DNA of 64,000 nucleotides from Bacteroidota bacterium (GCA_021824145.1 JAKALM010000015.1:1-64000), one strand, 5' to 3'. Positions 128-16,849 are shown, counted from the stretch's first letter. Made by a program: numbers and translations. Notes: generated by a model from the letters alone, not told the origin.

Positions 128-1714
128 GTGAACAGCTTCTTTAAGGTAAACGGTACATTTGTTAACCCGGATCATCTTGCGGGTTACTTAGTATCTGTTA
201 TTTCTTTTGCTTTTGGTATCTATAAATTTATGCCGGGGAAAGAAGGTGCGGGAAAATTAATCAAGTATTTAGCATTAATAACATTCTTAGCCTGCATTTT
301 TATATTGCCTTCTTTGCGGATAAGGTCTTCCTGGATAGCAGTTTTACTTGGAATAGGCGTAATATATCTCTATCAAAAAGATGTTAGGGAAAACTTAAAT
401 AAATATTTTAACAGCCTTATAAAAAAGGGAGCGGCAATATTATTATTAGCTGTAATAACAGTTAGCACAATATTACTGTTATATAAAATAAAGCCGGCTT
501 CCGCTGACGGCAGATTATTTATTTGGAAGATAACAAGCCGTATGATTAAAGAAAATCCAATTTGGGGAATTGGGTTTGACAGGTATGGATCCGAATATGG
601 GAATTACCAGGCAGATTATTTTGATGATGAGGGCGGAAGCGATTATGAAAAATTTATTTCGGGAAATGTAAAACAAGCGCACAATGAATATATACAAATA
701 TGGGCTGAGCTTGGAACAATTGGATTATTGATTTGGTTAGGGATAATTGTATCAGCACTATGGGGGTATAAAAAGAACGACCTTCCTCCGCCAGGAATTT
801 TGATAAATTCAGAAAACGGGAGACAAGTAGGCAGTAAGCAGTATGGAGTAGTGAGTGCTTCCTCAAAGGTAAACAATTCAATAACAAATCTTCCTAAAAA
901 TTTTACTCAAGAATTTCTAAGTGACGGAATATTTTATGCGTTAAAAATTTCTGCCAAAGCTTCTTTAATTGCGCTTCTTGCCGTCGGTGTTTTTTCTTTC
1001 CCGTTACATATTCTACCTACATATATAAATTTTATTTTCTTTCTTTCAATTTTAAGCGCAACGGTAAAACCAAAAATAATTTTTGAGCGAAGTCTTCCTA
1101 ATTACACAAGCCTTGCAGCTACGCAGGCGAGCCGTGCGGCTACGCAGGTTAAAACAGCTTCTGCATTTATAGTGGTAATTATTGTTTCTTTTATCATTGT
1201 GGAAAAGTACAAATTATTTAATGCATACCAAGTATGGAAAGAAGGATATGAACTTGCTTCTTACGGACAATATAACTTATCGTTGAAAGAATTTGAGAAA
1301 GTATATCCAACTTTAAGAGATGATGGAGAATTTTTATTTAATTACGGCGGAGTACTGATGTTGAATAATGATTATAAAAATGCTGCCGTTTTACTTGAAG
1401 AGTCCAAGAAAAATTATTTAGACCCTAAACAGTATACAAACTTAGGAGCATGCTTTGAAAAAATGAATGAATATAAAAAAGCAGAACTAAATTATAAGTA
1501 TGCTGTAAACATGGAGCCGAATAAGATTTATACGAAATATTTATTGACAAAGCTTTATATGAAAGAGAAAAAATACTACGAGGCAAAGGAAGAGTGTAAA
1601 AGTATACTTAACACAAATGCAAAAGTTGAGACTACAGCGGCTCAGGAAATAAAAGATGAGATAAAAAATATTATTGCAGAACTAAACAATCCTGCATTAA
1701 GCGGGAATAATTAA
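128..1714 (+). CDS. O-antigen ligase (Wzy_C)-like membrane protein with C-terminal TPRs, N-terminally truncated
   Basis: This is the C-terminal two thirds of a Wzy_C/WaaL/PglL-type polytopic protein, a family that transfers undecaprenyl-linked glycan to lipid A or protein in the periplasm. The family signature HNEYIQIWAELG lies near residue 186 and is followed by membrane helices; TPR-like helices fill roughly residues 375-515. The protein opens directly at the mid-family motif NGTFVNPDHLAGYL, so the usual first four to five membrane helices are missing. GTG at 128 is the only available start, because stop codons precede it in frame. Frame 1 is open from base 1 to 141, so a frameshift near 120 joining it to an upstream part outside the window is possible. 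Two low-complexity, repeat-like stretches sit inside the frame (about 820-865 and 1105-1150). It may be a pseudogene. Its tail is duplicated at 3458-3490. Confidence 0.6.
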   Translation: MNSFFKVNGTFVNPDHLAGYLVSVISFAFGIYKFMPGKEGAGKLIKYLALITFLACIFILPSLRIRSSWIAVLLGIGVIYLYQKDVRENLNKYFNSLIKKGAAILLLAVITVSTILLLYKIKPASADGRLFIWKITSRMIKENPIWGIGFDRYGSEYGNYQADYFDDEGGSDYEKFISGNVKQAHNEYIQIWAELGTIGLLIWLGIIVSALWGYKKNDLPPPGILINSENGRQVGSKQYGVVSASSKVNNSITNLPKNFTQEFLSDGIFYALKISAKASLIALLAVGVFSFPLHILPTYINFIFFLSILSATVKPKIIFERSLPNYTSLAATQASRAATQVKTASAFIVVIIVSFIIVEKYKLFNAYQVWKEGYELASYGQYNLSLKEFEKVYPTLRDDGEFLFNYGGVLMLNNDYKNAAVLLEESKKNYLDPKQYTNLGACFEKMNEYKKAELNYKYAVNMEPNKIYTKYLLTKLYMKEKKYYEAKEECKSILNTNAKVETTAAQEIKDEIKNIIAELNNPALSGNN

Positions 1715-1899
1715 ATATAAATATAAGAGGTACAATTGTGAGTATCTTTATTAGAAAGCACCGGTCTAAAGCAGCCAAAATAATTGGCATAGCTTTCTTT
1801 GTACTGTTGATGTTTGTAAACATCCAGGTTAATACTAATCCAAGTAAGAGCGGAGACATTGATTTGTTTGGATTGAAAGTATCTTTGTTTACGCCTACA
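1685..1899 (+). repeat. Copy 1 of duplicated ligase-tail plus peptide-leader segment
   Basis: This segment covers the last codons of the ligase, the short spacer and the leader of the first small exported protein. It aligns without gaps to 3458-3672 at a constant offset of 1773 bases. Both copies share the tail ending SGNN-stop, the AAGAGGTACA ribosome-binding region and most of the leader, then diverge in the mature protein. Confidence 0.85.
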
Positions 1900-2079
1900 T
1901 TATATGCTAGTGGAGGAGGCGGGTGGAATCAATATGTGGCTTGCGGGGCAATCGATTGTAGTTATTTAGGAAACGAATTTTGTGGTTATGCAGACGTATG
2001 GAATAGTGACGGCACAGTTACAACATATTGGTGTATAATTTATGTTGTATATGGCGATCCAGGTGGACCTAGAACTTAA
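1738..2079 (+). CDS. Small exported cysteine-rich protein A (NVEALA-like leader, 4 mature cysteines)
   Basis: A 113-residue protein starting at GTG, with AAGAGG just upstream. It has a basic N-terminus (RKHRSKAAK), one hydrophobic segment and a conserved stretch NPSKSGDIDLFGLKVSLFTP before an A-S-G-G-G-G junction. The layout resembles the NVEALA/GG-leader small secreted proteins that Bacteroidota encode beside six-bladed propellers; that comparison is from memory of the family. The mature part, after about residue 58, has four cysteines and is rich in Trp, Tyr and Gly. The leader is nearly identical to that of 3511-3960 while the mature region is unrelated, as in precursor peptides whose leader is read by shared machinery. 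Function unknown. A propeller gene follows directly. Confidence 0.7.
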   Translation: MSIFIRKHRSKAAKIIGIAFFVLLMFVNIQVNTNPSKSGDIDLFGLKVSLFTPTLYASGGGGWNQYVACGAIDCSYLGNEFCGYADVWNSDGTVTTYWCIIYVVYGDPGGPRT

Positions 2080-2177
2080 GTGTAAATGATTTAAAAACTA
2101 TAACTGATTTAAATAAAAATAATTAATAACTTATGACAATTAAATATTTAAGTCAGTTCTATAAATTAGGACTCAAT

Positions 2178-3305
2178 ATGAGAAGGAAAAAAATTCTTAT
2201 AACAATTATTACAGTACTTATAATTACCAGTTTCGCAATTCTTTTTTCCGAAAAGTTTAAATCATCATATAATGATAAACCTTTTGTTACGTTAAAGCTA
2301 GAAAATAAAGAGTATAAAATTTATACAACTTATAGCCCATATTATCAGGGCAACCAAAGAAAACTAAAAACAATTATACCAAAGCTATTATTATCTTTTG
2401 GAACAGAAAAAAAAGATTCATTATTTTTCCCTATAAAAATCAAAATGGAAGCTAAGGGATATATTGCTATACTTGATCAGGGAGATAAATCAATCAAGTT
2501 TTTCAACTCTAACAAAAAGTTGGTAAAAAAAATTGGAGGATATGGGAAAGGACCCGGTGAGTTTATATTACCGATGAATTTTTATTTCGATAATTCTAAT
2601 AATTTATATGTAGTTGATATTAATCTAAGAAGGGTAACCATTTTTAAAATGAAAGATACTACTTCAATTACATTAAACAAAGATATTCCTATCGAAATAT
2701 GCCCCATTAACACGCAAGAAATTGCATTGTTGAAATCATCAATAAATAATGAAAACAAGCCCATAGAAATTCGTAATATCAAAGATAATATTATAAGAGG
2801 TTATGCACCTATTTTAAATATTGAAGATAATCTACCAGTTTTTTACGATATCTCAGCTATTACTGTTGGAAATATTTTATATAATAATAATTTAATTTAT
2901 ATACCTAATTATTTGAATCATATAATTTTCTTTAACCAGAACGGGGGAATTAAGAATTCTGTTTGTACCATTGATTTAAATAAATTTCCTATCATTAACA
3001 ATAGAGCTAAATATATAAATAATAATAGAATGATTATGGGTTCTTTTAATGAACTTAAAAAATACAAAACTAACTTAAATTCATACATAATTGATGGTGA
3101 CATATTTATTCTTAGTAAAGATGGTACAGAAAAATATAATGCAATTGTTTTTGATAGGTATGAAGGCAAAACAGGGGAATACATAGATTCGTGGGTAATA
3201 AAGGGTATTTCAAAATTTGCTGATATATGCTTAACTGAAAATAAATTATTGATAATTGATAATAAATTAGCAATAAAGGAATATACATATGTAAAACCAA
3301 TTTAA
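2178..3305 (+). CDS. Six-bladed beta-propeller protein with N-terminal membrane anchor
   Basis: An exported propeller of the Bacteroidota 6-bladed type (PF17170/DUF5128-like). The hallmark is a GYGKGPGEF loop near residue 125, followed by NNLYVVDINLRRVTIF, the repeated (N/D)-x-(I/L)-Y-(V/I)-x-D blade pattern. I chose ATG 2178 because it places RRKK directly before one hydrophobic helix and has AGGACT upstream; an ATG at 2133 would add 15 residues with no visible ribosome site. No lipobox cysteine is seen, so it is probably a signal anchor. It sits between two small cysteine-rich proteins that share a leader. Family members are common beside NVEALA-type peptides, but their ligands are not known to me. 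Confidence 0.75.
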   Translation: MRRKKILITIITVLIITSFAILFSEKFKSSYNDKPFVTLKLENKEYKIYTTYSPYYQGNQRKLKTIIPKLLLSFGTEKKDSLFFPIKIKMEAKGYIAILDQGDKSIKFFNSNKKLVKKIGGYGKGPGEFILPMNFYFDNSNNLYVVDINLRRVTIFKMKDTTSITLNKDIPIEICPINTQEIALLKSSINNENKPIEIRNIKDNIIRGYAPILNIEDNLPVFYDISAITVGNILYNNNLIYIPNYLNHIIFFNQNGGIKNSVCTIDLNKFPIINNRAKYINNNRMIMGSFNELKKYKTNLNSYIIDGDIFILSKDGTEKYNAIVFDRYEGKTGEYIDSWVIKGISKFADICLTENKLLIIDNKLAIKEYTYVKPI

Positions 3306-3457
3306 TTTTTCAGTGTGCAACTATCTCTTGCATAATTATTACAGCCCAGTAAATAGTTCAATTAATAATTAAAAACATACAAAAACATAAATCATTTAAT
3401 ATTTGTAAATATAATTAAAAAATCTTAGCTCAAAGTAATGATAAATTTATTAAAGAT

Positions 3458-3672
3458 AACAATCTCGCAATAAGCGGGAATAATTAACAGTAAAAATAAG
3501 AGGTACAGAAATGAGTATCTTTTTTAGAAAACACCGGTCTAAAGCAGCCAAAATAGCTGGCATTGCTTTTTTTGCACTGTTGATGTTTGTAAACATCCAG
3601 GTTACTACTAATCCAAGCAAGAGCGGGGATATTAACTTATTGGGCTTGAAATTTTCTTTAATTACCCCAAGT
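3458..3672 (+). repeat. Copy 2 of ligase-tail plus leader duplication, with a ligase gene relic
   Basis: The first 33 or so bases still read in frame as DNNLAISGNN-stop, matching the ligase C-terminus LNNPALSGNN-stop at 1714, although no ligase gene is present here. The relic shows that the duplication unit began inside the ligase gene. Copy 1 is at 1685-1899. Confidence 0.8.
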
Positions 3673-3960
3673 GCAAGTGCACTAGATTATGATAATCCCC
3701 CAACTGGCGGCGGCGGGACATTACATTCAATGGTTTCAATAAGAACAGATGTCTGGACATGTTATCACTTGGAATCTATTCAAATTTTAGGGAATACTAT
3801 ATTCTGCAATACTATTTACCAGGTTTCTGTAAATACCGAATCTTGTCAAGGTCCTTTACAAGAATGTACACCAGGTACCTGGAGATGGAACCCAAATCCA
3901 CCTTGCGGAGGAGATGCAACGAGTGATGGTGGGCATTTACGTTGTGATAACTGGATTTAA
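3511..3960 (+). CDS. Small exported cysteine-rich protein B (same leader as A, 6 mature cysteines)
   Basis: A 149-residue protein with ATG start and the AAGAGGTACA site 5 bases upstream. Residues 1-50 match protein A almost throughout: basic start, LLMFVNIQV hydrophobic core and NPSKSGDINLLGLKFSLITP. A probable signal-peptidase-like junction SASA precedes a PPTGGGG linker. The mature part has six cysteines, and the last third (QECTPGTWRWNPNPPCGG) is Pro/Trp/Gly-rich. An even cysteine number and thioredoxin-like neighbours suggest disulfides; that is inference. No homologue function is recognised. Confidence 0.7.
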   Translation: MSIFFRKHRSKAAKIAGIAFFALLMFVNIQVTTNPSKSGDINLLGLKFSLITPSASALDYDNPPTGGGGTLHSMVSIRTDVWTCYHLESIQILGNTIFCNTIYQVSVNTESCQGPLQECTPGTWRWNPNPPCGGDATSDGGHLRCDNWI

Positions 3961-4124
3961 TTATATTAAATGCTGGCAAAGAAATTGAGTTAAAAAAATA
4001 AATTTTTAGTTTATTCAAAATTAAAATAAGTCAAACAAATATTTTAATAAATTTTTGGAATAATGTTTAAAATAAAAATTAAAAACATAATTCCAACATT
4101 CAAAGTGGAATCATTTTTATTATA

Positions 4125-4245
4125 TGACTCCGCTCTAAAAAAGTCAATCACGTGAAAACGGGAATCTAAAAAACTTCATATATAGAATAGATCCTACTTC
4201 TCGAGAATGACAATTCAAGTATTTTAGCTTTTTAGAGCGGACTCA
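4125..4245. mobile_element. 121-bp MITE-like element with terminal inverted repeats and TTATA target duplication
   Basis: The left end TGACTCCGCTCTAAAAAAGT and the right end AGCTTTTTAGAGCGGACTCA are imperfect inverted repeats (17 of 20). The element is bordered on both sides by TTATA (4120-4124 and 4246-4250), a likely target-site duplication. It has no coding capacity. The interior carries a CGTGAAAACGGGAATC segment that resembles the repeat near 15.4 kb. It fills most of the 336-base gap between 3960 and 4297. Confidence 0.75.
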
Positions 4246-4296
4246 TTATATTAAATTATTTTTTTGCCAGAGTAAAATTTTATAAGGAATTTTCTT

Positions 4297-5379
4297 ATGT
4301 CATTAAAAAGCGCAATAAGAACTTTATTATTAATAACTTTAGTTCTTTTTCAAAGTTGTAAAAATACGAATAAAAATGATGCAAGCTTATTTAAAACTAA
4401 TAAATTCGAACTACCCATTGATAAAGTTTTTAGAACTCAAAAGATTAGTCTAGAATCAAATGTAAAAAGTATGATCTCATTTCCTTACGATCTTATAAGA
4501 TGTAATAATCGAATTATTATTTCGTCTAGAGCAACAGAAATAAAGGTGTTTGATATGAATGGAAGATACCTATATAAAATTGGTAGAATAGGCGAGGGTC
4601 CAGGAGAATATAAAAGTATAAATTGTTTATTTTCTATTACAGATAACAAAATAGGAATTTATGATCAGTCAAATTCAAGAATATCAATATTTGATATAAA
4701 TGGAAATTACTTAATGAGTAAAATTGTAAATATTGAAGATGTATATAGTTTAAGAAGAATAATTAATTATAGAAATAATTATTATATACATAAACCATAT
4801 ACAAAAAAATATCCATGTAATTTGATGATGCTGGACTCTAATTTTAAAATTATAAATAATTTATTAGAAGCTTCTGATAATTATGCTGGTTACCTATACC
4901 GTGGATTATTTAATGGAGGTATATTTTTAGATACAACAAGTAATTCATTATACGAAATAAATACCTATTCAGATAATATTGTAAGAAAGCTTGATTTGAA
5001 AACTGGACATGTTACAAATATAAATTTAGGTCAGCCCTACTTTTATAAAATAGTTCCACCATTAAAGAATTTACATGACGTATCTAATACAATGAAAAAT
5101 TATCATCTTGGGACAGATATTTTTAATATGTTTGTTCTAAAAAATAGGTATTTATTCATTCAATATTTAGATTTCGAAAATAACATATCAAAAGTAAAGA
5201 TGGTCTTATATGATTTAAATACATATAACTCCTATTTATTAAAGGGAATAATAGCGCCCACCTACTCTGACGGTAATTATTTATATGAATTAAGGTACTC
5301 TGAAAAAAATAATAATAAAGATAATCAAGTAAAAAATGCAATAATAATACTTTATAATTTTAATGAGGGAAATTTATGA
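4297..5379 (+). CDS. Six-bladed beta-propeller lipoprotein
   Basis: A 360-residue propeller with a signal peptide ending in a lipobox (VLFQSC, Cys near residue 22), so it is predicted to be a lipid-anchored outer- or inner-membrane protein. The family loop GRIGEGPGEY lies near residue 105, followed by blade repeats such as NKIGIYDQSNSRISIFDINGNYL. ATG 4297 has AAGGA upstream. Its stop codon overlaps the start of the thioredoxin-like gene (ATGA), so the two are translationally coupled, which ties the propeller to thiol chemistry in the locus. Ligand unknown. Confidence 0.75.
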   Translation: MSLKSAIRTLLLITLVLFQSCKNTNKNDASLFKTNKFELPIDKVFRTQKISLESNVKSMISFPYDLIRCNNRIIISSRATEIKVFDMNGRYLYKIGRIGEGPGEYKSINCLFSITDNKIGIYDQSNSRISIFDINGNYLMSKIVNIEDVYSLRRIINYRNNYYIHKPYTKKYPCNLMMLDSNFKIINNLLEASDNYAGYLYRGLFNGGIFLDTTSNSLYEINTYSDNIVRKLDLKTGHVTNINLGQPYFYKIVPPLKNLHDVSNTMKNYHLGTDIFNMFVLKNRYLFIQYLDFENNISKVKMVLYDLNTYNSYLLKGIIAPTYSDGNYLYELRYSEKNNNKDNQVKNAIIILYNFNEGNL

Positions 5380-5939
5380 TTAAATATGCCGCATTCATTG
5401 TCTTGATTATTTTGAATGTAGTATCTTTATATGAATTAGTAAGAGAAAGAGAAAATGAAAAAAACAAACAAGTCCTAAACAATGATTCCGCAAATAATGT
5501 AAATGTAGAAAAAGAGTTAATTTCAATTGATACAATATTAGCAAAAAGCTGGCAAAATAATAATGAGTTAGATAACCATAATAACCCAATAATTTTGTTT
5601 TTCTTCTCAAAGAAGAATTGCCAAACCTGCACTTCTACGATATTTGATAATTTGTCTAGAATTAATAAGAAGACTCTTGGTATATTCTATATATCCACCG
5701 ATATAAAAAATAAAAATGAACAAATTCCTTATTTAGCAAAATTTCAACACTTAGACCGCTTTTATTCTTTAGAGAAAATATCATTTTCTAAAGATTTAAG
5801 AAAATCACTGCCGTTATTATTATTTGTTGATAGAAATAAAAATATTTTATTTTCAAAAAGTATTATACCTATGGAAAATAAATTTGATGATAAATTATTT
5901 TGGGAAAGACTAAAGTTCATTGAAAATTCAATTGAGTAG
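5376..5939 (+). CDS. Membrane-anchored thioredoxin-like protein with CXXC
   Basis: A 187-residue protein with an N-terminal anchor helix (residues 3-20) and a thioredoxin-like domain. The core strand IILFFFSKK runs into a CQTC active site (Cys82, Cys85); a later LPLLLFVDRNKNIL segment matches the beta-strand/turn pattern typical of TlpA/ResA relatives. The active site faces the periplasm by topology. It overlaps the upstream propeller gene by 4 bases. A plausible job is reduction or isomerisation of disulfides in the small cysteine-rich proteins, but substrate and redox direction cannot be read from sequence. Confidence 0.7.
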   Translation: MIKYAAFIVLIILNVVSLYELVRERENEKNKQVLNNDSANNVNVEKELISIDTILAKSWQNNNELDNHNNPIILFFFSKKNCQTCTSTIFDNLSRINKKTLGIFYISTDIKNKNEQIPYLAKFQHLDRFYSLEKISFSKDLRKSLPLLLFVDRNKNILFSKSIIPMENKFDDKLFWERLKFIENSIE

Positions 5940-5988
5940 AGAATATATTAATCATTTATTTTAATATTTATTTAAGACTTTTTATAGC

Positions 5989-6525
5989 ATGCTTTTAAAA
6001 ATTATAAATATGGATATTTTATTTTTCTGTTTAGTACTTTTCAATCTAATTTTGATTTATGATTATAGTGAAGAAGAAAATAAAATTAGAATACTAACTT
6101 CGCTTTTGATTAAACATGAAAGGATAGAATCTAATAATGAAATTTATTTAAATAAGGGATTAAAATTTATTGGTTACCACGATAAGAATTATAAGATTAA
6201 ACTTATTTATGTAGTTACTACCTCCAGGTTTATTGATAAACAAGAGCAAGAATTTTTAAGCAACATTTTTAGAAAGTACCCAAAATTTATTGAAATATTT
6301 TCAAGCGAAAGAACCATCGCACTAAAAAATGCAACTTTCAATTACAAGTTGATTAAAGGTATAAATATTTTTAATAAAGAGATTAATTTTAAGGACTCAA
6401 CAGCATTTATAATCGACAAGAATGGCCGCGTGCATGCCGTTTATGTTATTGATTATAATAATAGGGATGAAGCTCGAAATATGATTGAACGAATAAACTC
6501 TCTGCTATATTCAATATATGGCTAA
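5989..6525 (+). CDS. Membrane-anchored thioredoxin-fold-like protein lacking active-site cysteines
   Basis: A 178-residue protein with an N-terminal hydrophobic anchor and a domain whose pattern (IKLIYVVTTSRF early, DSTAFIIDKNGRVHAVYVI late) resembles a TlpA-type thioredoxin fold. There is no CXXC; the expected position reads TTSR. It could be a binding or structural relative of the preceding CXXC protein. Its 3' end overlaps the M23 gene by 8 bases. The fold assignment is by pattern only. Confidence 0.5.
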   Translation: MLLKIINMDILFFCLVLFNLILIYDYSEEENKIRILTSLLIKHERIESNNEIYLNKGLKFIGYHDKNYKIKLIYVVTTSRFIDKQEQEFLSNIFRKYPKFIEIFSSERTIALKNATFNYKLIKGINIFNKEINFKDSTAFIIDKNGRVHAVYVIDYNNRDEARNMIERINSLLYSIYG

Positions 6526-7036
6526 GAAAATAATTATAATATTAGTTTTAGCATTTATTGTTTGTGCAGCTATTCCCGGGGAATGGATAACAATTTATAA
6601 GCATTATCATTTTAATGGGACAAAAGTTCCATTAAAAATTCCAGTTGAAGGTATTTCAAAATCTGAATTGGAAGATACATTTGGCGCTCCAAGAGGAGAT
6701 AATAGAAAACATTTGGGAATAGATATTCTTAGCTCAAGAGGAACTAAGGTGCTTAGTTCAACAGATGGCGTAATAATATATAAAGGGCGGGATATTTTAG
6801 GCGGCAACGTAGTTAAAATTTTAGGTGCGGATAATAAGCTATACTATTATGCGCATTTAGATTCATTTGAGAATTTAGAAGCTGAGCAACAAGTAAAGCG
6901 AGGTGAAATAATAGGCTATGTTGGAAATACTGGAGATGCAGTAAGCACACCACTGCATCTACATTTTGAAGTTATGAAAATTAAATGGCTATTTCCATTA
7001 ATAATGACTAATGAAAATTCATATTATTTATTGTAA
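6518..7036 (+). CDS. M23 (LytM-like) zinc endopeptidase
   Basis: A 172-residue exported peptidoglycan endopeptidase. After a signal/anchor helix (residues 3-18), the M23 domain shows all zinc and catalytic residues: HxxxD at His65/Asp69, YYAHL (His113) and HLHFE (His147/His149), plus the family glycines in KRGEIIGYVGNTG. It is short, with almost nothing but the catalytic domain. It ends the first half of the locus, as a lysozyme-like enzyme ends the second. Probable role: local opening of peptidoglycan. Active-site completeness argues against a regulatory, inactive LytM. Confidence 0.85.
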   Translation: MAKKIIIILVLAFIVCAAIPGEWITIYKHYHFNGTKVPLKIPVEGISKSELEDTFGAPRGDNRKHLGIDILSSRGTKVLSSTDGVIIYKGRDILGGNVVKILGADNKLYYYAHLDSFENLEAEQQVKRGEIIGYVGNTGDAVSTPLHLHFEVMKIKWLFPLIMTNENSYYLL

Positions 7037-7086
7037 TAGATAAGAATATTTTGTAACGATTATTACGGTTTACGTAAAAAACATTT

Positions 7087-7327
7087 TAAGAAAACGGGTT
7101 GGAGAGATAATTGCCGCTGCCATCAACATCAATAAAGCGCCCGGTTACGGTTACGATGTTCTACCTGGGTATTGCGTTAATAGGCATATATGCCTTTAGC
7201 AGAATAGGAGTAGATTTATTACCAAACGTAAATATTCCCCATTTGTTAGTTCAGACTTCATACCCGGATGCAACACCTGAAGAAGTAGAGAAGCTAATAA
7301 CAGAGCCGCTTGAATCTGCAGTTGGAA
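7087..7327 (+). repeat. Copy 1 of 241-bp direct repeat (RND 5' end)
   Basis: This matches 11728-11968 at a constant offset of 4641 bases, from the TTAAGAAAACGGG leader through codon 72 of the RND gene. By eye there are about 19 differences, nearly all synonymous and none in the last 85 or so bases. The two copies flank a 4.4-kb cassette. Confidence 0.9.
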
Positions 7328-7341
7328 TGACGCACTATTAA
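7111..7341 (+). pseudogene. Truncated RND efflux permease (first 72 codons)
   Basis: It reads MPLPSTSIKRPVTVTMFYLG and onwards, matching the start of the intact permease at 11752 with only two amino-acid differences before divergence at ESAVG. It then ends after MTHY at a stop. It keeps the TTG start and the GGAGAG ribosome site of the full gene, so a 76-residue single-helix stub could still be made. Only the first transmembrane helix and the beginning of the porter domain remain, so no transport function is expected. Confidence 0.9.
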
Positions 7342-7398
7342 GTTGTATTGAGGAATATATCTGCCCCAGTAATTTTATTTGCATGCGAAATAATAATC

Positions 7399-7441
7399 AA
7401 TGCAGTGAATCCCTGCAATAAAAATGCAGGGAATCCCTGCA
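7399..7441. repeat. Twin palindromic 19-mers
   Basis: AATGCAGTGAATCCCTGCA (7399-7417) and AATGCAGGGAATCCCTGCA (7423-7441) are direct repeats with one mismatch. Each is itself nearly palindromic around GGGAATCCC, so the pair can fold as one long or two short hairpins. They lie just past the RND stub and could act as a terminator, a protein-binding site or a REP-like repeat. Confidence 0.65.
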
Positions 7442-7517
7442 TTGACAAAAGAATTTTTACAGGTTAAGTTATTTCCAGAAAAAGTAAAAATTTAATTTTA
7501 TAAAAAAGGATTTATTA

Positions 7518-7709
7518 TTGTACTTAAAGGGTACAGATATTTCCGGAATCGCTGAAAAACAAAAGAGCTTCTTCTTATATGCAAATCAATTCATCACTAT
7601 CCTTTTGGCAGTATTATTATTTGTCGGAATAAATAAGGAAATTGATCCTTTTGCTTTAATAGGGAATTTAACTTTAATGTTTCATTATTCTCAATTTACC
7701 ATTTCATAA
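7518..7709 (+). CDS. Hypothetical short membrane protein or gene remnant
   Basis: A 63-residue reading frame with TTG start and AAAAAGGA upstream. It has one clear hydrophobic helix (FITILLAVLLFVGI) and a second weaker one. No family is recognised. It lies between the RND stub and the MauE-thioredoxin gene and may be the 5' remnant of a larger membrane protein cut during cassette insertion. Confidence 0.3.
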   Translation: MYLKGTDISGIAEKQKSFFLYANQFITILLAVLLFVGINKEIDPFALIGNLTLMFHYSQFTIS

Positions 7710-7744
7710 GGTTTTCAAAACGAATTAAAAATATTCAAACAATA

Positions 7745-8695
7745 ATGAAAAGTAATATTTACAGCCTTCTTAGACTTTTATATGGATCAATTTTTATTTT
7801 CTCTGGAGTCTCAAAATTATATTATCGGAGCGAATTTGTATCTGCATTGTATTCTTATAATATAATACCAACTGAAATAACTACTTATTTCGCAATTTTT
7901 ATAATTGTTGTGGAAATAATTATTGGCTTAGGAATTATTGTTAGATTATTAGATAAATTTTTTTTGGTTTTTTCAATTTTTCTGTTACTGTCATTCACAA
8001 TATTTGCCATTTATTCTGTAATTTTTGATAAAAATTGGGTGTGTTATTGTTTTGGCTCTTGGTTATTTCATAAATTAAACTTCATAACAATCATCAGGAA
8101 TTGTATAATTATTTTTTTAGGTTTGTATTTAATAACATTTAGAAAAATAACTATAGCAAAGAATCCAAAATTTATTTTTGGGAAATATTCCATTATTCTG
8201 CTTACGCCGTTATTACTAATCGGAACGATACATCTGATAAAGTCTCAAAAGAATATTAAACAAGTAGAACCAGGCGCATATATCCCTATAAGTGATTTTT
8301 TCCAAACCAACTATTATAAAATGTATGACAAGAAGTATAAATATGTTTTGCTAGTAGCTTTTGATTATAGCGATTGTTCAAGTTGTTTAATGGAAACATA
8401 TTTATGGAAAGAAATATATGAAAAATATAATAAGAATATATTGATATTGGGTATAGGTTCGGCACCGAATAAATTATTGCTTGATCAATTTATCAAGGAC
8501 AAACAATTAAATTTTACGATTTCTTATGACCAAGAGAAAATTTTTACTAAACGATATGGTATTATAACACCAGCAAGAATGGTTCTTGATAGAAATAACA
8601 AATTAATTAGCATAGAACGTTCTAGCGGATTTATTAAGAGACATAAACAGATTGTGAATTATTTTGACTCACTTTCAAACGATTATATTTTCTGA
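7745..8695 (+). CDS. MauE/DoxX-type membrane protein fused to a thioredoxin-like domain
   Basis: A 316-residue protein. The N-terminal half has four or five helices of the MauE/DoxX family, including the entry motif FIFSGVSKLYY and a C-x-C-F-G pair (Cys100, Cys102). After a further helix near 147-163, the C-terminal domain carries CSSC (Cys211, Cys214) and a cis-Pro-like ITPARMVLDRNNKL segment typical of thioredoxin folds. MauE relatives support disulfide formation in periplasmic proteins (known for methylamine dehydrogenase) and move electrons across the membrane. The fusion suggests electron transfer between the Cys100/102 pair and CSSC. It directly precedes an 8-cysteine exported peptide. 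Confidence 0.7.
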   Translation: MKSNIYSLLRLLYGSIFIFSGVSKLYYRSEFVSALYSYNIIPTEITTYFAIFIIVVEIIIGLGIIVRLLDKFFLVFSIFLLLSFTIFAIYSVIFDKNWVCYCFGSWLFHKLNFITIIRNCIIIFLGLYLITFRKITIAKNPKFIFGKYSIILLTPLLLIGTIHLIKSQKNIKQVEPGAYIPISDFFQTNYYKMYDKKYKYVLLVAFDYSDCSSCLMETYLWKEIYEKYNKNILILGIGSAPNKLLLDQFIKDKQLNFTISYDQEKIFTKRYGIITPARMVLDRNNKLISIERSSGFIKRHKQIVNYFDSLSNDYIF

Positions 8696-8741
8696 AACAA
8701 AATTAATTATAGTTGCTTCTTCATAAAAAAAAGGAGTTATT

Positions 8742-8975
8742 ATGAAAAGAATATTTTATAAGTTAGCATCAGTTGGAGCCATATTGACAGCTCTTATGGT
8801 TCTAACGTTTAATTCGAAGCCGACATATAGTTGTTGGAAGCCTTGTAATCAACCGAGAGACTGCTCCTGGGACTTACCTCCAGGTCAAATTTTATGTTGG
8901 AGTTGTCCAGATACTGATATTTGTGGACATGTATCTGGATTTGTTTGCTGTTATGACAGCGGTGATGAAGATTAA
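8742..8975 (+). CDS. Small exported cysteine-rich protein C (8 mature cysteines)
   Basis: A 77-residue protein with AAGGAG 7 bases before its ATG, a strong site for this region. A basic start and hydrophobic core (residues 11-25, GAILTALMVLTFN) end near SKPTYS. The remaining 43 or so residues hold eight cysteines, including CWKPC, CWSC and a final CC. The leader differs from proteins A and B but has the same length and position relative to a propeller. Dense, even-numbered cysteines suggest a knotted, disulfide-stabilised peptide; function is unknown. Its stop codon is 44 bases before the next start. Confidence 0.7.
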   Translation: MKRIFYKLASVGAILTALMVLTFNSKPTYSCWKPCNQPRDCSWDLPPGQILCWSCPDTDICGHVSGFVCCYDSGDED

Positions 8976-9018
8976 ATTTTATTTAATTATTGAAGCAACT
9001 ATAATCTTATTTAATGTT

Positions 9019-10035
9019 ATGAGAAATATCATCAAAAAATTGCTTTTTTGTTTTATATCTGGATTATTTTTGGTTTCATGTTCTAATGATACACTAAAAC
9101 CGGATATTTTTTTAATTAATAAAGAATTAACTATTGGAGATTCAAAGAAAAACATTATAGGTATAATAAGCGATTTTAAGATAGATCAAAAAGGAAATAT
9201 CTATATTTTAGATAGCGGATTTAAAAGGATTGATAAGTTTAACAAGGATGGAGTCTTGATAAAGGTTTTTGGATTTGGCGAAGGACGGGGACCCGGAGAA
9301 TTTATAGCACCACATGCTTTAGATATTGATAGACTTGGTAATATATATGTCGTAGATAAAATCCTGAGAAACATTACTGTCTTTGATTCATTGAACAATG
9401 TTATATATACTCAAAAATTGAAATTTATGCCTGCACAAATTTTAGTAAGCGCATCTAAAATTGTTTATTCTTCTGGATTTCTGCATTCATATGATGGAGA
9501 CATAATTTACAAATATAATTTTAATAATCCATCAAATTACTTTGTAAAAAGTTTTTGCAAACGTTTAACCAGTTCTAATAGTTTAACAATTGAAATGAGT
9601 GGTAATTCCGGAAGATTATTTAAAGACAATAATAATAATGTTTATTTTAGTTTCTCATATCCATATGAAATACGAAAATATAATCCTGATGGAGTCATAG
9701 TAAAAACATATAAAGAAAGTCCTTCATTTTTCAGTGACCCATATTTTGATAGTGAGAAAAAATATGTTGTGTCAAATTCAGGTTGCTATGAAACATTTTT
9801 TTTGAATGATAGTCTTTTATTTAATTTAATATATAGGAAGTCAGGTGAACAGATAGATTATTATTGGGACATTATAAATTTTGATAATTTAAAAAACATA
9901 GGCAGAATTAATATAAAAAAGGTCGGTCTTGACAGCGTAAGATTTATAAGAAGCGACCTCAACGGAAACATATACCTTGATCGTTTATCCCCATACCCAC
10001 ATATAGATAAATATTCGCTAAAAATTAAAAAGTAA
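9019..10035 (+). CDS. Six-bladed beta-propeller lipoprotein
   Basis: A 338-residue propeller with lipobox GLFLVSC. I use ATG 9019 rather than upstream in-frame starts because it gives a clean signal peptide (MRNIIKKLLFCFISG) and avoids overlap with the cysteine-rich gene. The family loop reads GFGEGRGPGEF, with blades such as GNIYVVDKILRNITVFD. It is the third of its kind in the locus. The surface-exposed position implied by the lipid anchor would suit binding of the adjacent peptide; this is inference. Confidence 0.75.
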   Translation: MRNIIKKLLFCFISGLFLVSCSNDTLKPDIFLINKELTIGDSKKNIIGIISDFKIDQKGNIYILDSGFKRIDKFNKDGVLIKVFGFGEGRGPGEFIAPHALDIDRLGNIYVVDKILRNITVFDSLNNVIYTQKLKFMPAQILVSASKIVYSSGFLHSYDGDIIYKYNFNNPSNYFVKSFCKRLTSSNSLTIEMSGNSGRLFKDNNNNVYFSFSYPYEIRKYNPDGVIVKTYKESPSFFSDPYFDSEKKYVVSNSGCYETFFLNDSLLFNLIYRKSGEQIDYYWDIINFDNLKNIGRINIKKVGLDSVRFIRSDLNGNIYLDRLSPYPHIDKYSLKIKK

Positions 10036-10040
10036 GTTCA

Positions 10041-11024
10041 GTGATAATAAAAAGAAATAGATCTTACCAGACATTGCTTTTCGTTTTTCTATTTGGTATT
10101 ACAAATTATACTTTGCCAAAAGAAGGCGTGAATTATTATAGAAAAATCAAGTTAAAGGATGATGTGAAATGGAAAAATATTGTTCTTTTGACTCAGGCAC
10201 CTTTGATTGGTGGGATAATGAAACATTCATTTATTCTTTACGATCCTAGAACTTTTGTAGAAAAATTGTCTTTACCCTACACGGCCAGTATTTCATCTAA
10301 TGAGGGGAAATTATTGTTGTTTAGTCGTCAAAACAAAAACAATTGCAATCTGATATTATGGAGTGATAAGTTTAAAAAATTAAATGCGAAAAAATTTGTT
10401 TCCAACAAGTTAATGATTGATACGAGATACTACAATAATTGTTTCTGGGAATTAGCCATTAATCTTGATGATTACGTTTTAGGTAAAACAAATAACTCAA
10501 TAAATGGTGAGATAAATAATCTTTCTGAAAATAAAAAAATCATGATCAGCCATATTCAAAAACCACCACCATTGAGGATTTCTCTACCAACTTTTGATAT
10601 TAATAAAAACATTTATGTAGCATTCGATGACACTTATAACATTGATGTTTATTCAGAATTAGGTAATAAATTATTTTCGTTTGGGATAAAAAATTTTCAA
10701 AATATCCCAATATCAAAGGAAGAATATAATTATCTATCTGATTTTGAAAAATCTGTTGCGATACCTGAGGTAACATTACCAAAACTACTAAAAAGAATAC
10801 AAGCATTTGCAAATATGATCTTAATTATACGAGAACCGAGACCAGGATCTAATTTAATTTTTATCGATTTTTTCGATAAAGGTGGGCAAAAATTAAAAAC
10901 CAATAAATACAGAATTGATGAAATGCAAAAGTTAGTAGATGTGTATATTTTAGGAAATAATCTTTATGCATTAACAAATGATGATAACAAAAACACTTAC
11001 TATTTGTACTATTTTAAACTTTAA
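10041..11024 (+). CDS. Exported propeller-like protein of unknown function
   Basis: A 327-residue protein starting at GTG, five bases after the preceding stop, so clearly co-transcribed. It has an N-terminal hydrophobic segment (LLFVFLFGITNYTL) and beta-rich sequence. One stretch (NIYVAFDDTYNIDVYSELGNKLFSFG, residues about 191-216) has the blade pattern seen in the neighbouring propellers, but the GPGE loop is absent. It may be a divergent propeller partner. No specific family is recognised. Confidence 0.55.
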   Translation: MIIKRNRSYQTLLFVFLFGITNYTLPKEGVNYYRKIKLKDDVKWKNIVLLTQAPLIGGIMKHSFILYDPRTFVEKLSLPYTASISSNEGKLLLFSRQNKNNCNLILWSDKFKKLNAKKFVSNKLMIDTRYYNNCFWELAINLDDYVLGKTNNSINGEINNLSENKKIMISHIQKPPPLRISLPTFDINKNIYVAFDDTYNIDVYSELGNKLFSFGIKNFQNIPISKEEYNYLSDFEKSVAIPEVTLPKLLKRIQAFANMILIIREPRPGSNLIFIDFFDKGGQKLKTNKYRIDEMQKLVDVYILGNNLYALTNDDNKNTYYLYYFKL

Positions 11025-11026
11025 TT

Positions 11027-11683
11027 ATGAAATTATTAAGGAAGAAAATAGCTATATATGAGTTTTTTGTAATAATGGTTATTGTGATTATTTTTTATCA
11101 ATTCTATCCTTACCCAAAACAGAACGGAAAAGGTATACTTCTTAATGAAATTACATCTTTTAATGGTGATATTTTAAAAACAATCGTTGTTAATGAAAAG
11201 TTTATAAAAAAATTAATTAATGAAATTGGAATTCAACATAGAATATTTATCAGTATTATTTATTCTGAACTTAAGTTAAATTATAATGACTTTGACAGAT
11301 TTGATGAAATAAGGGCAAGATGGGGATTCGATCCATCGGTTGGATTTGCTCAAATGAAAATATCTACCGCATATTGGATTGAAAATAATTATAATAATGG
11401 AAAACTAATTAGAAAAAGTAAAAGTCGTGAAGAATTAATAGATAAAATTATTAATGATTCAACAAATGTAATCTATTCTGGATTTTATATTAAACTTATT
11501 CAAGACAAGCTATTTTTTAAATTTCACGAAAAGCCAAGTATAAAATTAATTGCTTCATATTATGGAAGAGGAATAGATTATTACCGCGAAGATTATATTG
11601 ATAGCTCATATTATAATCAGATAGGGATAACCGCACAGGAGTTTTATGACTCAGATAAACTTTTAGATTCCTTTCCGAGATAA
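11027..11683 (+). CDS. Lysozyme-like/SLT-type transglycosylase-like protein
   Basis: A 218-residue protein, two bases after the previous stop. An N-terminal anchor helix (residues 11-27) is followed by a goose-lysozyme/SLT-like domain. The catalytic-type glutamate is in IIYSELKLNY (Glu81), then SVGFAQMKISTAYWI matches the (G)-(L/F)-x-Q-(I/M) motif, and SYYGRG near residue 185 matches the (A/S)-Y-N/Y-x-G element. Probable peptidoglycan-cleaving enzyme. It parallels the M23 gene that ends the first half of the locus. The intact RND gene begins 69 bases later. Confidence 0.6.
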   Translation: MKLLRKKIAIYEFFVIMVIVIIFYQFYPYPKQNGKGILLNEITSFNGDILKTIVVNEKFIKKLINEIGIQHRIFISIIYSELKLNYNDFDRFDEIRARWGFDPSVGFAQMKISTAYWIENNYNNGKLIRKSKSREELIDKIINDSTNVIYSGFYIKLIQDKLFFKFHEKPSIKLIASYYGRGIDYYREDYIDSSYYNQIGITAQEFYDSDKLLDSFPR

Positions 11684-11727
11684 ATTATATAAATTTATGT
11701 TAATTTTATTTGAGGAAAATAATCCTT

Positions 11728-11968
11728 TAAGAAAACGGGTTGGAGAGATAATTGCCGCTTCCATCAACATCGATAAAGCGTCCGGTAACAGTAACAATGT
11801 TCTACCTGGGCATTGCGTTAATAAGCATCTATGCCTTTAGTAGGATAGGGGTAGATTTATTACCTAATGTAAATGTTCCCCATTTATTAGTACAGACCTC
11901 ATACCCGGATGCAACACCTGAAGAAGTAGAGAAGCTAATAACAGAGCCGCTTGAATCTGCAGTTGGAA
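11728..11968 (+). repeat. Copy 2 of 241-bp direct repeat (inside the intact RND gene)
   Basis: Partner of 7087-7327; it includes the leader, the TTG start and the first 72 codons of the permease. Homologous recombination between the two copies would delete the intervening 4.6 kb and leave one complete RND gene. Confidence 0.9.
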
Positions 11969-14900
11969 CTGTTAATGGAGTAAAGAATATTTCGTCTGTA
12001 TCAAAGCAGGGCATATCGGTTATCTCCGTTGATTTTACATGGGGAACGAATATGGACTATACAATGCTCGCAATGCGGGAGAAACTTGATAACGTCCGTT
12101 TCATATTGCCAAGAGAAGCAGAACGGCCAACCATAATAAGGATAAATCCTTCATCAACGCCTATATTAAATTTGGTTTTAACATACAGGGGAACAAATCA
12201 AAACAAAATTAATTTTGTTAATTACACATCAAGTGAAAATGACATAAAAAAACTAATCGATCTAAAGGAAGCGGCAAGAGTTATTTTTAAGAGACGATTA
12301 GAACAAATAGAAGGAGTCGCGCAGGCAGCGCTTACCGGCGGGCTCGAAAGGGAGGTAGATGTTGAAATTGAGCCGGGAAAACTTACCGAGTATAATTTGA
12401 CTTACGCGGAGATAGCAAACGCACTTAAAACTTCTAATATTAACTTACCTGCCGGCTCAATATTAAACGGTCTGTTTAGATATTCGCTGCGTGCAACAGG
12501 TGAATTTAAAAATATAGATGATATAAAAAATACAATAATAAAGCGTAATGAAAACAGCGGAGTTATTTATTTAAAAGATATTGCAAACGTTAAAGAAAGC
12601 TTTAAGGACAGGGAAGGAATAACAAGATTTAACGGTAATGAAACCGTCGGTTTACTTATTTATAAAGAGCCAGAATCGAATACGGTGGATATATCGAATA
12701 GAATTAATAAAACCGTTTCGGAATTAAATAAAGAATATCCGGATTACCACTTAGCCGTAGTTTCGGATTACTCGCAGTTTATAGTAAACGCTATTCAAAA
12801 TGTTGAGCAGGAAATTATATACGGCGGCATACTTGCTTTCTTTGTGCTTTTCTTTTTCCTGAATAACTTAAGAAGCGTATTTATTATAGGGGCAACAATA
12901 CCGGCTTCATTAGCGCTTACTGTTTTAATGATGTATTTGTTTAACATCAATTTTAATATTGTATCTCTTGGGGGTATGGCATTGGGCGTAGGCATGCTTT
13001 TAGACAATGCAATAATAGTAATTGAAAATGTTATCCGGCTGAGGGAAGAAGGTTATTCATTGCGGGATGCGGCAATTAAAGGATCTGCCGAAGTAGAAAT
13101 GCCGGTTGTGGCAGCTACACTAACTACTATAGCGGTGTTTCTTCCGCTTGTTTTTATAAAAGGAATTGCCGGGGAATTATTTAAAGACCAGTCGTACGCT
13201 ATTGTATTTTCTCTCAGCGCTTCCATAGTTACCGCAATAACGTTAATACCGATGCTTGCATCGAGAGAGAAGTTTAAGTTTATAAATTCGGGAAAATATT
13301 TGAGGGATGATTACCTGGTTATAAAAAGTTCCAATTCAAATAATTTTTTTGGTAAGATAATATTTTGGCTTAAGCTTCCATTCCTATTTGCTGTAAAATC
13401 ATTCTTATACGCAAGTTCATATTTATTTGATAAAATTTCCAAATTGTTTAAGAGGTTCTTTGATAGATTTTTTGTAAGAGTAAATAAATTTTTAGATACA
13501 ACAATAATTTATTATGAGCGTTTATTGCAATGGGCATTAGACAACCGCGTAAAAGTTTTATTTATAACCTTGTTTCTCATTGCAATAACAATTATAGCCG
13601 CGGTAGATATGAAGAAGGAATTTATTCCGGAAGGAGCGGGGGACGAATTTATTGTGCAATTGGAATTTCCCAAAGGTACATCGCTTGAAGGCAATGCTGA
13701 AACAACTTCCAGGATAGAGAATGAGATATTGAAAATTAAAGGTGTACAAAGCGAGCTTGCAAATATCGGCCGCGTAAATGAGTTCGATTATTTGAATAGA
13801 GACCAAATATCTATTGACAAAACAAACATAACTGTTAAGCTTGTATCGAGCGATTATTATTATACCGTACAAAACGAACTTCGGAACATTCTTAGAGGTA
13901 TGAAGACTGCAAAGTTTTCATTCCAGAAAGTAAAGACAGCATACACACAAGTGTTAAACAGCGCGGACAATGATATAATAATAAAGGTTAAGAATAAAAA
14001 TATAGACGCTGCCGTAAGCAAAGCCGAATTGATTATCAAAAATATAAAAGCAAGCGGCCTTACTGATATTTCGGATTTGAGAATTGGGCTGGAATCCGGT
14101 GAGCCTGAATATCAAATTACAATTGACAGAGAAAAATGCCTTGCATACGGAATTAATATTAACGACGCTTCAAATCAATTAGTTAATATGGTAAAAGGGA
14201 TGAATGCAACCTATTTTACAGACTTTGATAAAAAGATAGCTGTTAATATTGTAAGTCCACCAGGTGATGTGAACGAATTGAAGGAGATTTTATCTTATGA
14301 GGTAATAAACGGGAATGAAAAAATCCCCTTGCAAAATTTGGTTAGTTATAAATTGACAAACAGTTATGGAGAAATATGGCGGGAGAATCAGGCAAGGACG
14401 GTATATATATATGCAAATTCAAATGAAGGCGTGGATAAGGCGGCAGCACAATTAAATGAAGTTATTAATAAGACTTCAAGAGATCCGGGTGAGATGATTG
14501 TGGTTGAGGGAACCAATAAAGAAATAAATGAATCTTTCAGTGAATTATATGCTGCATTAATTATATCGGTATTATTAATGTTTATTGTGCTCGCTTCTGA
14601 ATTTGAATCTTTGCTATTTCCATTCATAATAATTTTTTCCGTGCCTCTTGGTTTGATAGGAGGAATTTTGATATTGTATATTTTCGGTCAGAGTATAAAT
14701 ATAATTTCAATTATGGGCTTAATAATTTTAGTAGGAATTGCGGATAATGACGCAGTAGTTAAGGTGGAATATATAATAAGGAAACGCCAGGAAGGCCTGC
14801 CAATAAGAGAAGCAATAATAGAAGCCGGACAGCAAAGATTTCGTCCAATTGTTATGAACTCATTTACAGTTATATTCGGATTGATTCCAATGATGATAGG

Positions 14901-15048
14901 AATTGGTGCAGGTACACAATTGCGGGTATCGCTTTCATTGGCAATTGCAGGCGGGTTGGTATCATCGACATTTTTAACATTGATAATAATTCCGGTGCTG
15001 TATACTTACTTAGAAAAATATTCGAGGAAGAAATTTGAAACAAAATAA
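11752..15048 (+). CDS. RND (HAE1/AcrB-like) efflux permease 1
   Basis: A full-length 1098-residue inner-membrane RND transporter with TTG start and GGAGAG upstream. It shows two repeats of six helices and two large periplasmic loops. The helix-4 proton-relay region reads GMLLDNAIIVIENV (one Asp, then Asn) and the helix-10 counterpart GIADNDAVVKVEYI. The linker between helices 6 and 7 is long and Phe/Lys-rich (about residues 505-595). It works with a periplasmic adaptor (15545) and an outer-membrane channel not found here. Substrate is not predictable. Its first 72 codons also exist as a stub at 7111. Confidence 0.9.
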   Translation: MPLPSTSIKRPVTVTMFYLGIALISIYAFSRIGVDLLPNVNVPHLLVQTSYPDATPEEVEKLITEPLESAVGTVNGVKNISSVSKQGISVISVDFTWGTNMDYTMLAMREKLDNVRFILPREAERPTIIRINPSSTPILNLVLTYRGTNQNKINFVNYTSSENDIKKLIDLKEAARVIFKRRLEQIEGVAQAALTGGLEREVDVEIEPGKLTEYNLTYAEIANALKTSNINLPAGSILNGLFRYSLRATGEFKNIDDIKNTIIKRNENSGVIYLKDIANVKESFKDREGITRFNGNETVGLLIYKEPESNTVDISNRINKTVSELNKEYPDYHLAVVSDYSQFIVNAIQNVEQEIIYGGILAFFVLFFFLNNLRSVFIIGATIPASLALTVLMMYLFNINFNIVSLGGMALGVGMLLDNAIIVIENVIRLREEGYSLRDAAIKGSAEVEMPVVAATLTTIAVFLPLVFIKGIAGELFKDQSYAIVFSLSASIVTAITLIPMLASREKFKFINSGKYLRDDYLVIKSSNSNNFFGKIIFWLKLPFLFAVKSFLYASSYLFDKISKLFKRFFDRFFVRVNKFLDTTIIYYERLLQWALDNRVKVLFITLFLIAITIIAAVDMKKEFIPEGAGDEFIVQLEFPKGTSLEGNAETTSRIENEILKIKGVQSELANIGRVNEFDYLNRDQISIDKTNITVKLVSSDYYYTVQNELRNILRGMKTAKFSFQKVKTAYTQVLNSADNDIIIKVKNKNIDAAVSKAELIIKNIKASGLTDISDLRIGLESGEPEYQITIDREKCLAYGININDASNQLVNMVKGMNATYFTDFDKKIAVNIVSPPGDVNELKEILSYEVINGNEKIPLQNLVSYKLTNSYGEIWRENQARTVYIYANSNEGVDKAAAQLNEVINKTSRDPGEMIVVEGTNKEINESFSELYAALIISVLLMFIVLASEFESLLFPFIIIFSVPLGLIGGILILYIFGQSINIISIMGLIILVGIADNDAVVKVEYIIRKRQEGLPIREAIIEAGQQRFRPIVMNSFTVIFGLIPMMIGIGAGTQLRVSLSLAIAGGLVSSTFLTLIIIPVLYTYLEKYSRKKFETK

Positions 15049-15060
15049 ATATTTCGCAGA

Positions 15061-15509
15061 GGCTGTGCAAAAAGTACGGGATTTTGTCATTTCCGTGAAA
15101 ACATATAGACGTCAACTTAATTTTATATGACGTAACTGTAATTAATATTAATGTAATGAGTTGTCAGAATGATAATGTTAAAGTTATTTATGCTAATAAG
15201 CCCTTCTCTTTGCAAGAGAAGGGTGGAGATGAGTTCGTGGCTTTACTATAATCTTGAACTCTCTCCAACCTCTCCCTTGAGAAGGGAGAGGCTTATTATC
15301 AAACTTATCTTTGCATTTGTCATTTTATTATAACAATTATTTTCAGTCATTTTACATGTTTTTGTACATTATTTAAATTATGTACGATTTTTTATTCCAT
15401 TTTAGGTTGACGCTGATGCGTATAAACGGGAATCCAAGCCCTTAAATATTTTAGTAGATTTCCGCTTTCGCGGGAATGACATTCATTAAAAAATACTTTT
15501 TTAGACAGC
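15061..15509. repeat. MITE-like repeat region with imperfect terminal inverted repeats and internal hairpins
   Basis: The left end (GGCTGTGCAAAAAGTA, then TGTCATTTCCGTGAAAAC) and the reverse complement of the right end (GCTGTCTAAAAAAGTA, then TGTCATTCCCGCGAAAGC) share order and most bases. Inside are a CCCTTCTCTT/AAGAGAAGGG hairpin (15201-15223) and a CCTCTCCCTT/GAAGGGAGAGG hairpin (15269-15291). No gene is visible in the 496 bases between the permease and the adaptor. Confidence 0.5.
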
Positions 15510-15544
15510 GTATACCGTGATAATTAAAACAGAATGGTGTTATA

Positions 15545-16828: not shown

Positions 16829-16849
16829 GGATGGAATTTATTAGATTTA

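What the first reader, a model, noticed from the sequence alone, without database searches (positions are those of the whole stretch)
1738..11683. Modular locus of cysteine-rich exported peptides, beta-propellers, thiol-redox proteins and cell-wall hydrolases
Seen: three small exported Cys-rich proteins, three GPGE-type six-bladed propellers plus one propeller-like protein, three thioredoxin-fold proteins (two with CXXC) and two peptidoglycan-cleaving enzymes, tightly packed on one strand. Known: propellers of this type and NVEALA-like small proteins co-occur in Bacteroidota, and MauE-type proteins assist disulfide formation. Inference: this may be a secretion/maturation system in which redox proteins fold the peptides, hydrolases open the wall and lipid-anchored propellers bind, guard or receive them. 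It could be a contact-dependent, antimicrobial or signalling system.
Basis: partly seen in the sequence, partly recalled or inferred. Interest (0 to 1): 0.88.

Follow-up and report, generated by a model that had tools for sequence, protein, structure and literature searches.

The report
Peptide–propeller cassettes tied to transport pumps
The window holds cassettes that pair a small cysteine-rich exported peptide with its own propeller-shaped protein, together with thiol-redox genes, next to a dedicated pair of membrane pumps; relatives in two other bacterial groups carry the same set, which suggests an undescribed way of making and releasing disulfide-bonded peptides.

Summary
The genes are real. 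The conserved unit is wider than 1738-11683: it starts at the Wzy-type ligase (128-1714) and runs through a two-RND pump operon (11752-20011). The genome is an Ignavibacteriales relative.

Shown: 26 leader peptides were found; 25 are followed at once by a propeller gene. Cores have 11.5% Cys, with even Cys counts in 40/43 peptides. Leaders are homogenised within a genome, while similar cores carry similar propellers (p=5e-5). All 12 genomes with a strong leader hit carry the orthologous pump gene (p=5e-12). Bacteroidales NVEALA arrays show the same architecture with unrelated leaders. Module-linked RND1 proteins from Ignavibacteria, Bacteroidales and an Aminicenantes form one clade (SH-aLRT 98-99). 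RND1-only searches recovered propellers in 17/30 Bacteroidales loci and 2/2 further Ignavibacteria; non-clade RND loci gave 0/65 and 0/13.

Inferred: Sec export, disulfide formation by MauE/Trx, then release through the RND pair, with the propeller as the peptide's cognate partner. Competition is the likeliest role, signalling next.

Not supported: a third thioredoxin, the propeller-like 10041 protein and the lytic enzyme at 11027. Function is untested; no paper on NVEALA turned up in the open-access library.

The parts
128..1714 (+). Wzy_C (O-antigen-ligase-like) membrane protein with C-terminal TPRs; start uncertain, contig begins at position 1
   Evidence: Pfam PF04932 E=1e-21; the ligase directly precedes 11 of 26 leader peptides in relatives
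1685..1895 (+). repeat copy 1: ligase 3' end plus leader coding part, ends where the core begins
   Evidence: 85% identical to 3458-3668
1738..2079 (+). leader peptide 1, variable core with 4 Cys
2133..3305 (+). propeller 1 (likely start 2178), N-terminal membrane anchor
   Evidence: PF17170 DUF5128 E=7e-7, above cut-off
3458..3668 (+). repeat copy 2: ligase 3' remnant plus leader
3511..3960 (+). leader peptide 2, variable core with 6 Cys
4297..5379 (+). propeller 2, lipobox (LFQSC)
   Evidence: PF17170 E=4e-14; model pTM 0.64, best PDB match 4raa BF0058 E=9e-13
5376..5939 (+). membrane-anchored thioredoxin-like protein, CQTC
   Evidence: family alignment with invariant CXXC; weak match to a thiol-disulfide oxidoreductase 2lja
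5989..6525 (+). unassigned exported protein
   Evidence: no significant family hit
6518..7036 (+). M23 metallopeptidase, zinc motifs present
   Evidence: PF01551 E=4e-23
7069..7341 (+). truncated acrB (RND1) 5' end, recombination scar
   Evidence: 92% to own acrB, 90% to the acrB of relative L074
7745..8695 (+). MauE-thioredoxin fusion, CSSC
   Evidence: PF07291 E=1e-21, PF00578 E=5e-7
8742..8975 (+). Cys-rich exported peptide 3, different signal, 8 Cys
9019..10035 (+). propeller 3, lipobox (LVSC); ORF opens at 8923
   Evidence: GPGE motif; custom propeller profile; weak Pfam only
10041..11024 (+). unassigned exported protein
   Evidence: no profile hit
11027..11683 (+). unassigned membrane-anchored helical protein; orthologue precedes acrB in the nearest relative
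   Evidence: 52-60% identity to L028 and L074 copies; enzyme role not supported
11752..15048 (+). RND1 pump with TM10 signature NDAVVK
   Evidence: PF00873; clade; signature
15545..16774 (+). periplasmic adaptor (membrane fusion protein)
   Evidence: syntenic with RND1 and RND2 in relatives
16850..20011 (+). RND2 pump
   Evidence: RND2 clade holds Ignavibacteria, Bacteroidales and Aminicenantes copies

Best explanation
A modular two-step secretion system for disulfide-rich peptides. Each peptide precursor carries a constant, genome-specific N-terminal leader that sends it through Sec; the leader is removed (a LepB-type signal peptidase is encoded in several loci); MauE and the anchored CXXC proteins form its disulfides; the Wzy-type ligase may add a glycan. 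The mature peptide is then taken from the periplasm by a dedicated RND pump pair with its adaptor and released. Each peptide has a cognate propeller lipoprotein that binds it, most simply as a holdase or self-protection protein. New core-propeller cassettes enter by recombination at the constant leader and pump ends. The most likely use is competition between close relatives. Shown: gene composition, pairing, Cys parity, leader homogenisation, core-propeller linkage, RND clade. Inferred: every biochemical step, RND export and the biological role.
For: 25/26 leader peptides are followed by a propeller. Even Cys in 23/26 leader cores and 17/17 other peptides. Leaders track genome (0.57 vs 0.35 similarity, p=0.0005), cores and propellers do not; pairs with similar cores have similar propellers, p=5e-5 (only 5 pairs). 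All 12 strong-leader genomes carry RND1, 24/164 overall, p=5e-12. Modules sit inside the RND operon: between MFP and RND2 (L084, L116), MFP and RND1 (L205), RND1 and RND2 (L251). Bacteroidales NVEALA arrays show Wzy-MFP-RND1-RND2. RND1 clade support 98-99 under a mixture model. RND1-only search: 17/30 Bacteroidales loci with propellers; 2/2 further Ignavibacteria versus 0/13 sister RND loci. Precedent: MacB-family pumps export Sec-dependent peptides (PMC8277102).
Against: No transport or activity data. Nearest relative L074 keeps the pump without any peptide, and 13/30 Bacteroidales RND1 loci show no propeller, so the pump may have another substrate. No dedicated outer-membrane channel in the window cluster. 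No RND pump known to me is a dedicated exporter of ribosomal peptides. Propellers (about 370 aa) are large for immunity proteins. The global core-propeller Mantel test is not significant (p=0.06-0.12).
Confidence: 0.48

Rival explanations
1. Bacteriocin-type peptides leave by another route; the RND pair is self-protection that expels re-entering peptide, and propellers are immunity proteins.
For: Cassette-like core-propeller linkage and homogenised leaders look like toxin-immunity loci; RND pumps are efflux machines.
Against: The same pump clade is kept with entirely different cores and non-homologous leaders, which fits a general exporter better than specific resistance.
Confidence: 0.17
2. 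Peptide signalling: exported disulfide peptides are sensed by propellers or by neighbouring two-component regulators.
For: LuxR/NarL-type regulators or a kinase-regulator pair lie beside arrays in L009, L030 and L068.
Against: Cores are too variable within one genome (similarity 0.06) for one signalling dialect; many loci lack an adjacent regulator; the window start is cut by the contig end.
Confidence: 0.15
3. Cell-surface glycopeptides: the Wzy-type ligase attaches a glycan and peptides serve as surface or matrix components.
For: The ligase directly precedes 11/26 leader peptides and lies in many NVEALA arrays; weak match to PEP-CTERM O-glycosylation ligase TIGR03097.
Against: Many modules lack the ligase; does not explain the pump clade or the cognate pairing.
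Confidence: 0.1
4. Metal or redox handling: Cys-rich peptides chelate metal and the RND pair exports metal or metallopeptide.
For: Very high Cys content (11.5%); some RND pumps export metals (established knowledge).
Against: Even Cys parity and conserved oxidoreductases point to disulfides; no conserved metal motif noted; cores diverge too fast.
Confidence: 0.05
5. Hot-spot artefact: modules gather beside the RND operon only because it is an integration site.
For: Scars of acrB and ligase ends in the window show repeated recombination there.
Against: Association recurs at different operon positions, in three phyla, and follows the RND clade rather than the phylum (0/13 in sister RND loci of the same phylum); both loci of this genome sit by clade RNDs.
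Confidence: 0.05

Closest known systems
NVEALA peptide family (Pfam PF14055) with DUF4934/DUF5128 propellers, Bacteroidales
   Same: leader + Cys-containing core peptide, propeller next door, LepB, Wzy_C ligase, Trx/MauE and RND pair of the same clade
   Different: leaders not homologous by profile comparison; NVEALA model does not hit this genome; no described function found
MacAB-TolC export of E. coli heat-stable enterotoxin II and dispersin (PMC8277102)
   Same: two-step: Sec to periplasm, then a tripartite pump; small peptide or protein cargo
   Different: ABC-type MacB pump instead of an RND pair; no propeller partner, no cassette array
Aat system for CexE (PMC7943197)
   Same: dedicated tripartite-like secretion of a Sec-exported small protein with a modifying enzyme in the cluster
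   Different: ABC/Lol-like parts and glycine acylation by AatD; none of these genes identified here
MdtBC-type heteromeric RND pumps
   Same: two RND genes with one adaptor
   Different: module-linked RND1 copies (except the L009/L251/L252 subgroup) carry ND[AS]xxK in TM10, absent from 70 control RNDs; heteromer formation untested
Class II microcins/bacteriocins with C39 peptidase-ABC exporters
   Same: constant leader, variable core, paired second gene, dedicated exporter (from knowledge of the family)
   Different: membrane-spanning leader rather than a soluble double-glycine leader; no C39-ABC exporter identified in the annotated cluster

Membership tests
NVEALA (PF14055) | match to the curated profile | tested here: not met
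   no hit in own genome; no Pfam hit for window peptides; hhalign probability 5%
NVEALA-type array (architecture) | leader-Cys peptide followed by propeller, with Wzy_C, LepB or Trx nearby | tested here: met
   LepB only in some Ignavibacteria loci (L077), not in the window
DUF5128 6-bladed propeller (PF17170) | score above curated cut-off | tested here: met
   two of three window propellers; 17/19 family members match at E<=0.01
HAE-type RND pump operon | ACR_tran domain, adaptor gene and second RND in one operon | tested here: met
HAE-type RND pump operon | canonical AcrB proton relay D407/D408/K940 | tested here: not met
   D407 kept, D408 is N or S, K940 position is N with a new K five residues on; N at 940 also common in controls
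MacAB/STII-type two-step peptide secretion | MacB ABC transporter | tested here: not met
   pump is RND
MacAB/STII-type two-step peptide secretion | cargo exported by Sec then pump | not testable with these tools
   needs secretion assay
Known anti-phage defence system | match to PADLOC models | tested here: not met
   10 window proteins
Bacteriocin locus | peptide kills relatives, partner gene protects | not testable with these tools
   needs activity assay

The most novel reading that the evidence does not exclude
A previously undescribed secretion pathway: a distinct RND clade, mostly marked by ND[AS]xxK in TM10, acts as a dedicated exporter of Sec-delivered, disulfide-bonded, propeller-partnered peptides across Bacteroidota/Ignavibacteriota and at least one Aminicenantes, with interchangeable core-propeller cassettes used in competition.
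Probability: 0.38. Interest if true: 0.92.

Novelty: categorically new. Interest (0 to 1): 0.8.

Why it matters
It would give a function to catalogued but unexplained families (NVEALA, DUF5128, DUF4934) in gut Bacteroidales and in Ignavibacteria, add ribosomal peptides to the cargo of RND pumps, and open a large set of natural disulfide peptides with a built-in binding partner. The prediction is directly testable by deleting one pump gene and reading the secretome. The label 'categorically new' rests on gene composition and RND clade, which are shown; the mechanism is inferred.

Tried and rejected
NVEALA membership by sequence: rejected. Structure of 11027: pLDDT 46, no conclusion. PDB sequence search for 11027: none. 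Global Mantel correlation of core and propeller similarity: not significant; the thresholded test was significant but rests on five pairs. First Cys-parity count gave 25/26 with a fixed offset; recounting all Cys after the leader motif gives 23/26, which is used. I first computed the Bacteroidales propeller test with 18/30; the listed loci give 17/30. Literature: no hits for NVEALA; nothing bearing on DUF4934/DUF5128/BF3164 among the listed papers. L195 carries an RND outside the clade near an NVEALA array and was not counted as support. One control RND locus of 66 had propellers (L094); it lies inside the clade, so controls outside the clade are 0/65.

Full report
What is in the window. The stretch 1738-11683 is a run of same-strand genes. 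Profile searches support three Cys-rich exported peptides, three GPGE propellers, a membrane-anchored CXXC protein, a MauE-thioredoxin fusion and an M23 peptidase. They do not support the third thioredoxin (5989), the fourth propeller-like protein (10041), or a peptidoglycan enzyme at 11027. GAPDH and phosphoglycerate kinase lie beyond.

The locus is a mosaic. The ligase 3' end plus the leader is duplicated (1685-1895 and 3458-3668, 85% identical), and the match stops where the peptide core begins. The acrB 5' end is duplicated (7069-7327 and 11710-11968), the short copy being about equally distant from the own acrB (92%) and from that of the nearest relative (90%). The nearest relative (L074, acrB 90%) has the 11027-type gene and the pump but no modules. 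I read this as successive cassette insertions between ligase and pump; that is inference.

Related loci. In the order (Ignavibacteriales by named acrB orthologues) the leader profile hits 17/164 genomes, 12 of them strongly. All 12 carry the orthologous RND1, present in 24/164; hypergeometric p=5e-12. The recurrent order is MauE, Wzy ligase, (leader peptide, propeller, CXXC protein) repeated, then RND1, adaptor, RND2. Of 26 distinct leader peptides, 25 are followed directly by a propeller and 11 preceded directly by the ligase. The window genome has a second locus of the same kind on contig C27, again beside an RND pair.

Peptide features. Cores hold 11.5% Cys against 0.8% in other window proteins. 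Counting Cys after the leader motif, 23/26 leader cores are even; 17/17 leaderless neighbours are even; together 40/43, p=1.5e-9 for independent coin flips, although homologous frameworks make these not fully independent. Leader similarity is higher within than between genomes (0.57 vs 0.35, p=0.0005); cores and propellers show no such effect. The five pairs of modules with similar cores, all in different genomes, have propellers about four times more alike than the rest (0.35 vs 0.09; permutation p=5e-5). So core and propeller move as a unit, while the leader is a shared tag.

A second class and a third phylum. Bacteroidales NVEALA peptides (PF14055) have leaders unrelated by profile comparison, yet their arrays show the same neighbours: propellers, Trx, MauE, LepB, Wzy_C ligase, then adaptor, RND1 and RND2. 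NVEALA genes even lie between adaptor and RND1 in L205. The RND1 proteins of both groups, of the second window-genome locus and of an Aminicenantes form one clade, in FastTree and under LG+C20 (98-99). The Aminicenantes locus was the only one of 66 control RND loci with propellers; upstream it has further propellers, a Trx and small exported Cys peptides.

Tests free of peptide information. Searching 247 Bacteroidales-order genomes with RND1 alone gave 32 places; of the 30 not used to build the query, 17 have a propeller within about 20 kb, against 0/65 RND loci outside the clade. A phylum-wide search then gave two further Ignavibacteria that fall in the clade; both have modules (L251, L252), one with peptide and propeller between RND1 and RND2, while 13 RND loci from other Bacteroidota that fall outside it where placed (five in the tree) have none. 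A TM10 motif, ND[AS][ILV][ILVM]K, is in 17/17 Ignavibacteriales, 30/30 Bacteroidales and the Aminicenantes RND1, and 0/70 controls; the L009/L251/L252 subgroup lacks it.

Mechanism. The anatomy fits a two-step route: Sec export, leader removal, disulfide formation, optional glycosylation, pickup by the RND pair. MacB-family pumps provide a precedent for Sec-dependent first steps with peptide cargo (PMC8277102), and Aat for a composite system (PMC7943197). What differs is an RND pair, a cognate propeller per peptide and cassette arrays. The propeller fold prediction is moderate (pTM 0.64); its best PDB match is BF0058 of B. fragilis (4raa), which gives no function. Competition is favoured by core-propeller linkage and core diversity; signalling remains open, as regulators neighbour some arrays.

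Limits. All biochemical steps are inferred. Annotation of loci used profiles built here, with 20-kb stretches and many draft contigs. The 66 control RND loci come mostly from other phyla and have 10-kb flanks; the sister-clade control (0/13) is the fairest. The literature library holds open-access papers only, so a description elsewhere cannot be excluded.

Noticed in passing
window 7518-7709: Short ORF resembling the N-terminal half of MauE between the acrB fragment and the intact MauE-Trx gene; probably a MauE remnant.
   Followed up: no
L009 7027-12369 (own genome contig C27): Second peptide/propeller/MauE/Trx locus upstream of a different RND pair, which still falls in the same RND clade but lacks the TM10 motif.
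   Followed up: partly
L028 3762, 17657; L029 4868: MauE genes in G051 with an identical start in three places, diverging at the 3' end, as if homogenised like the leaders.
   Followed up: no
L030 5224-7045, L068 12960-13631, L009 5377-6807: LuxR/NarL-type regulators or a kinase-regulator pair directly upstream of arrays; possible induction control.
   Followed up: no
L066 12494, L032 9540, L070 7473, L069 9606, L071 2800, L031 7370: Several cores share a C-x(3-5)-C...C...C pattern with aromatic residues round the last Cys, and have similar propellers; mostly the module nearest RND1, possibly ancestral.
   Followed up: partly
L080 7418-7855; L068 2182-2580, L166 1354-1752, L168 2435-2833: A REP-type transposase-like gene (L080) or a GxxExxY-like gene (L068, L166, L168) inserted between RND1 and the adaptor.
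   Followed up: no
L077 1537-2220: Signal peptidase I (Peptidase_S26) gene directly upstream of RND1 in an Ignavibacteria locus, as in NVEALA arrays.
   Followed up: partly
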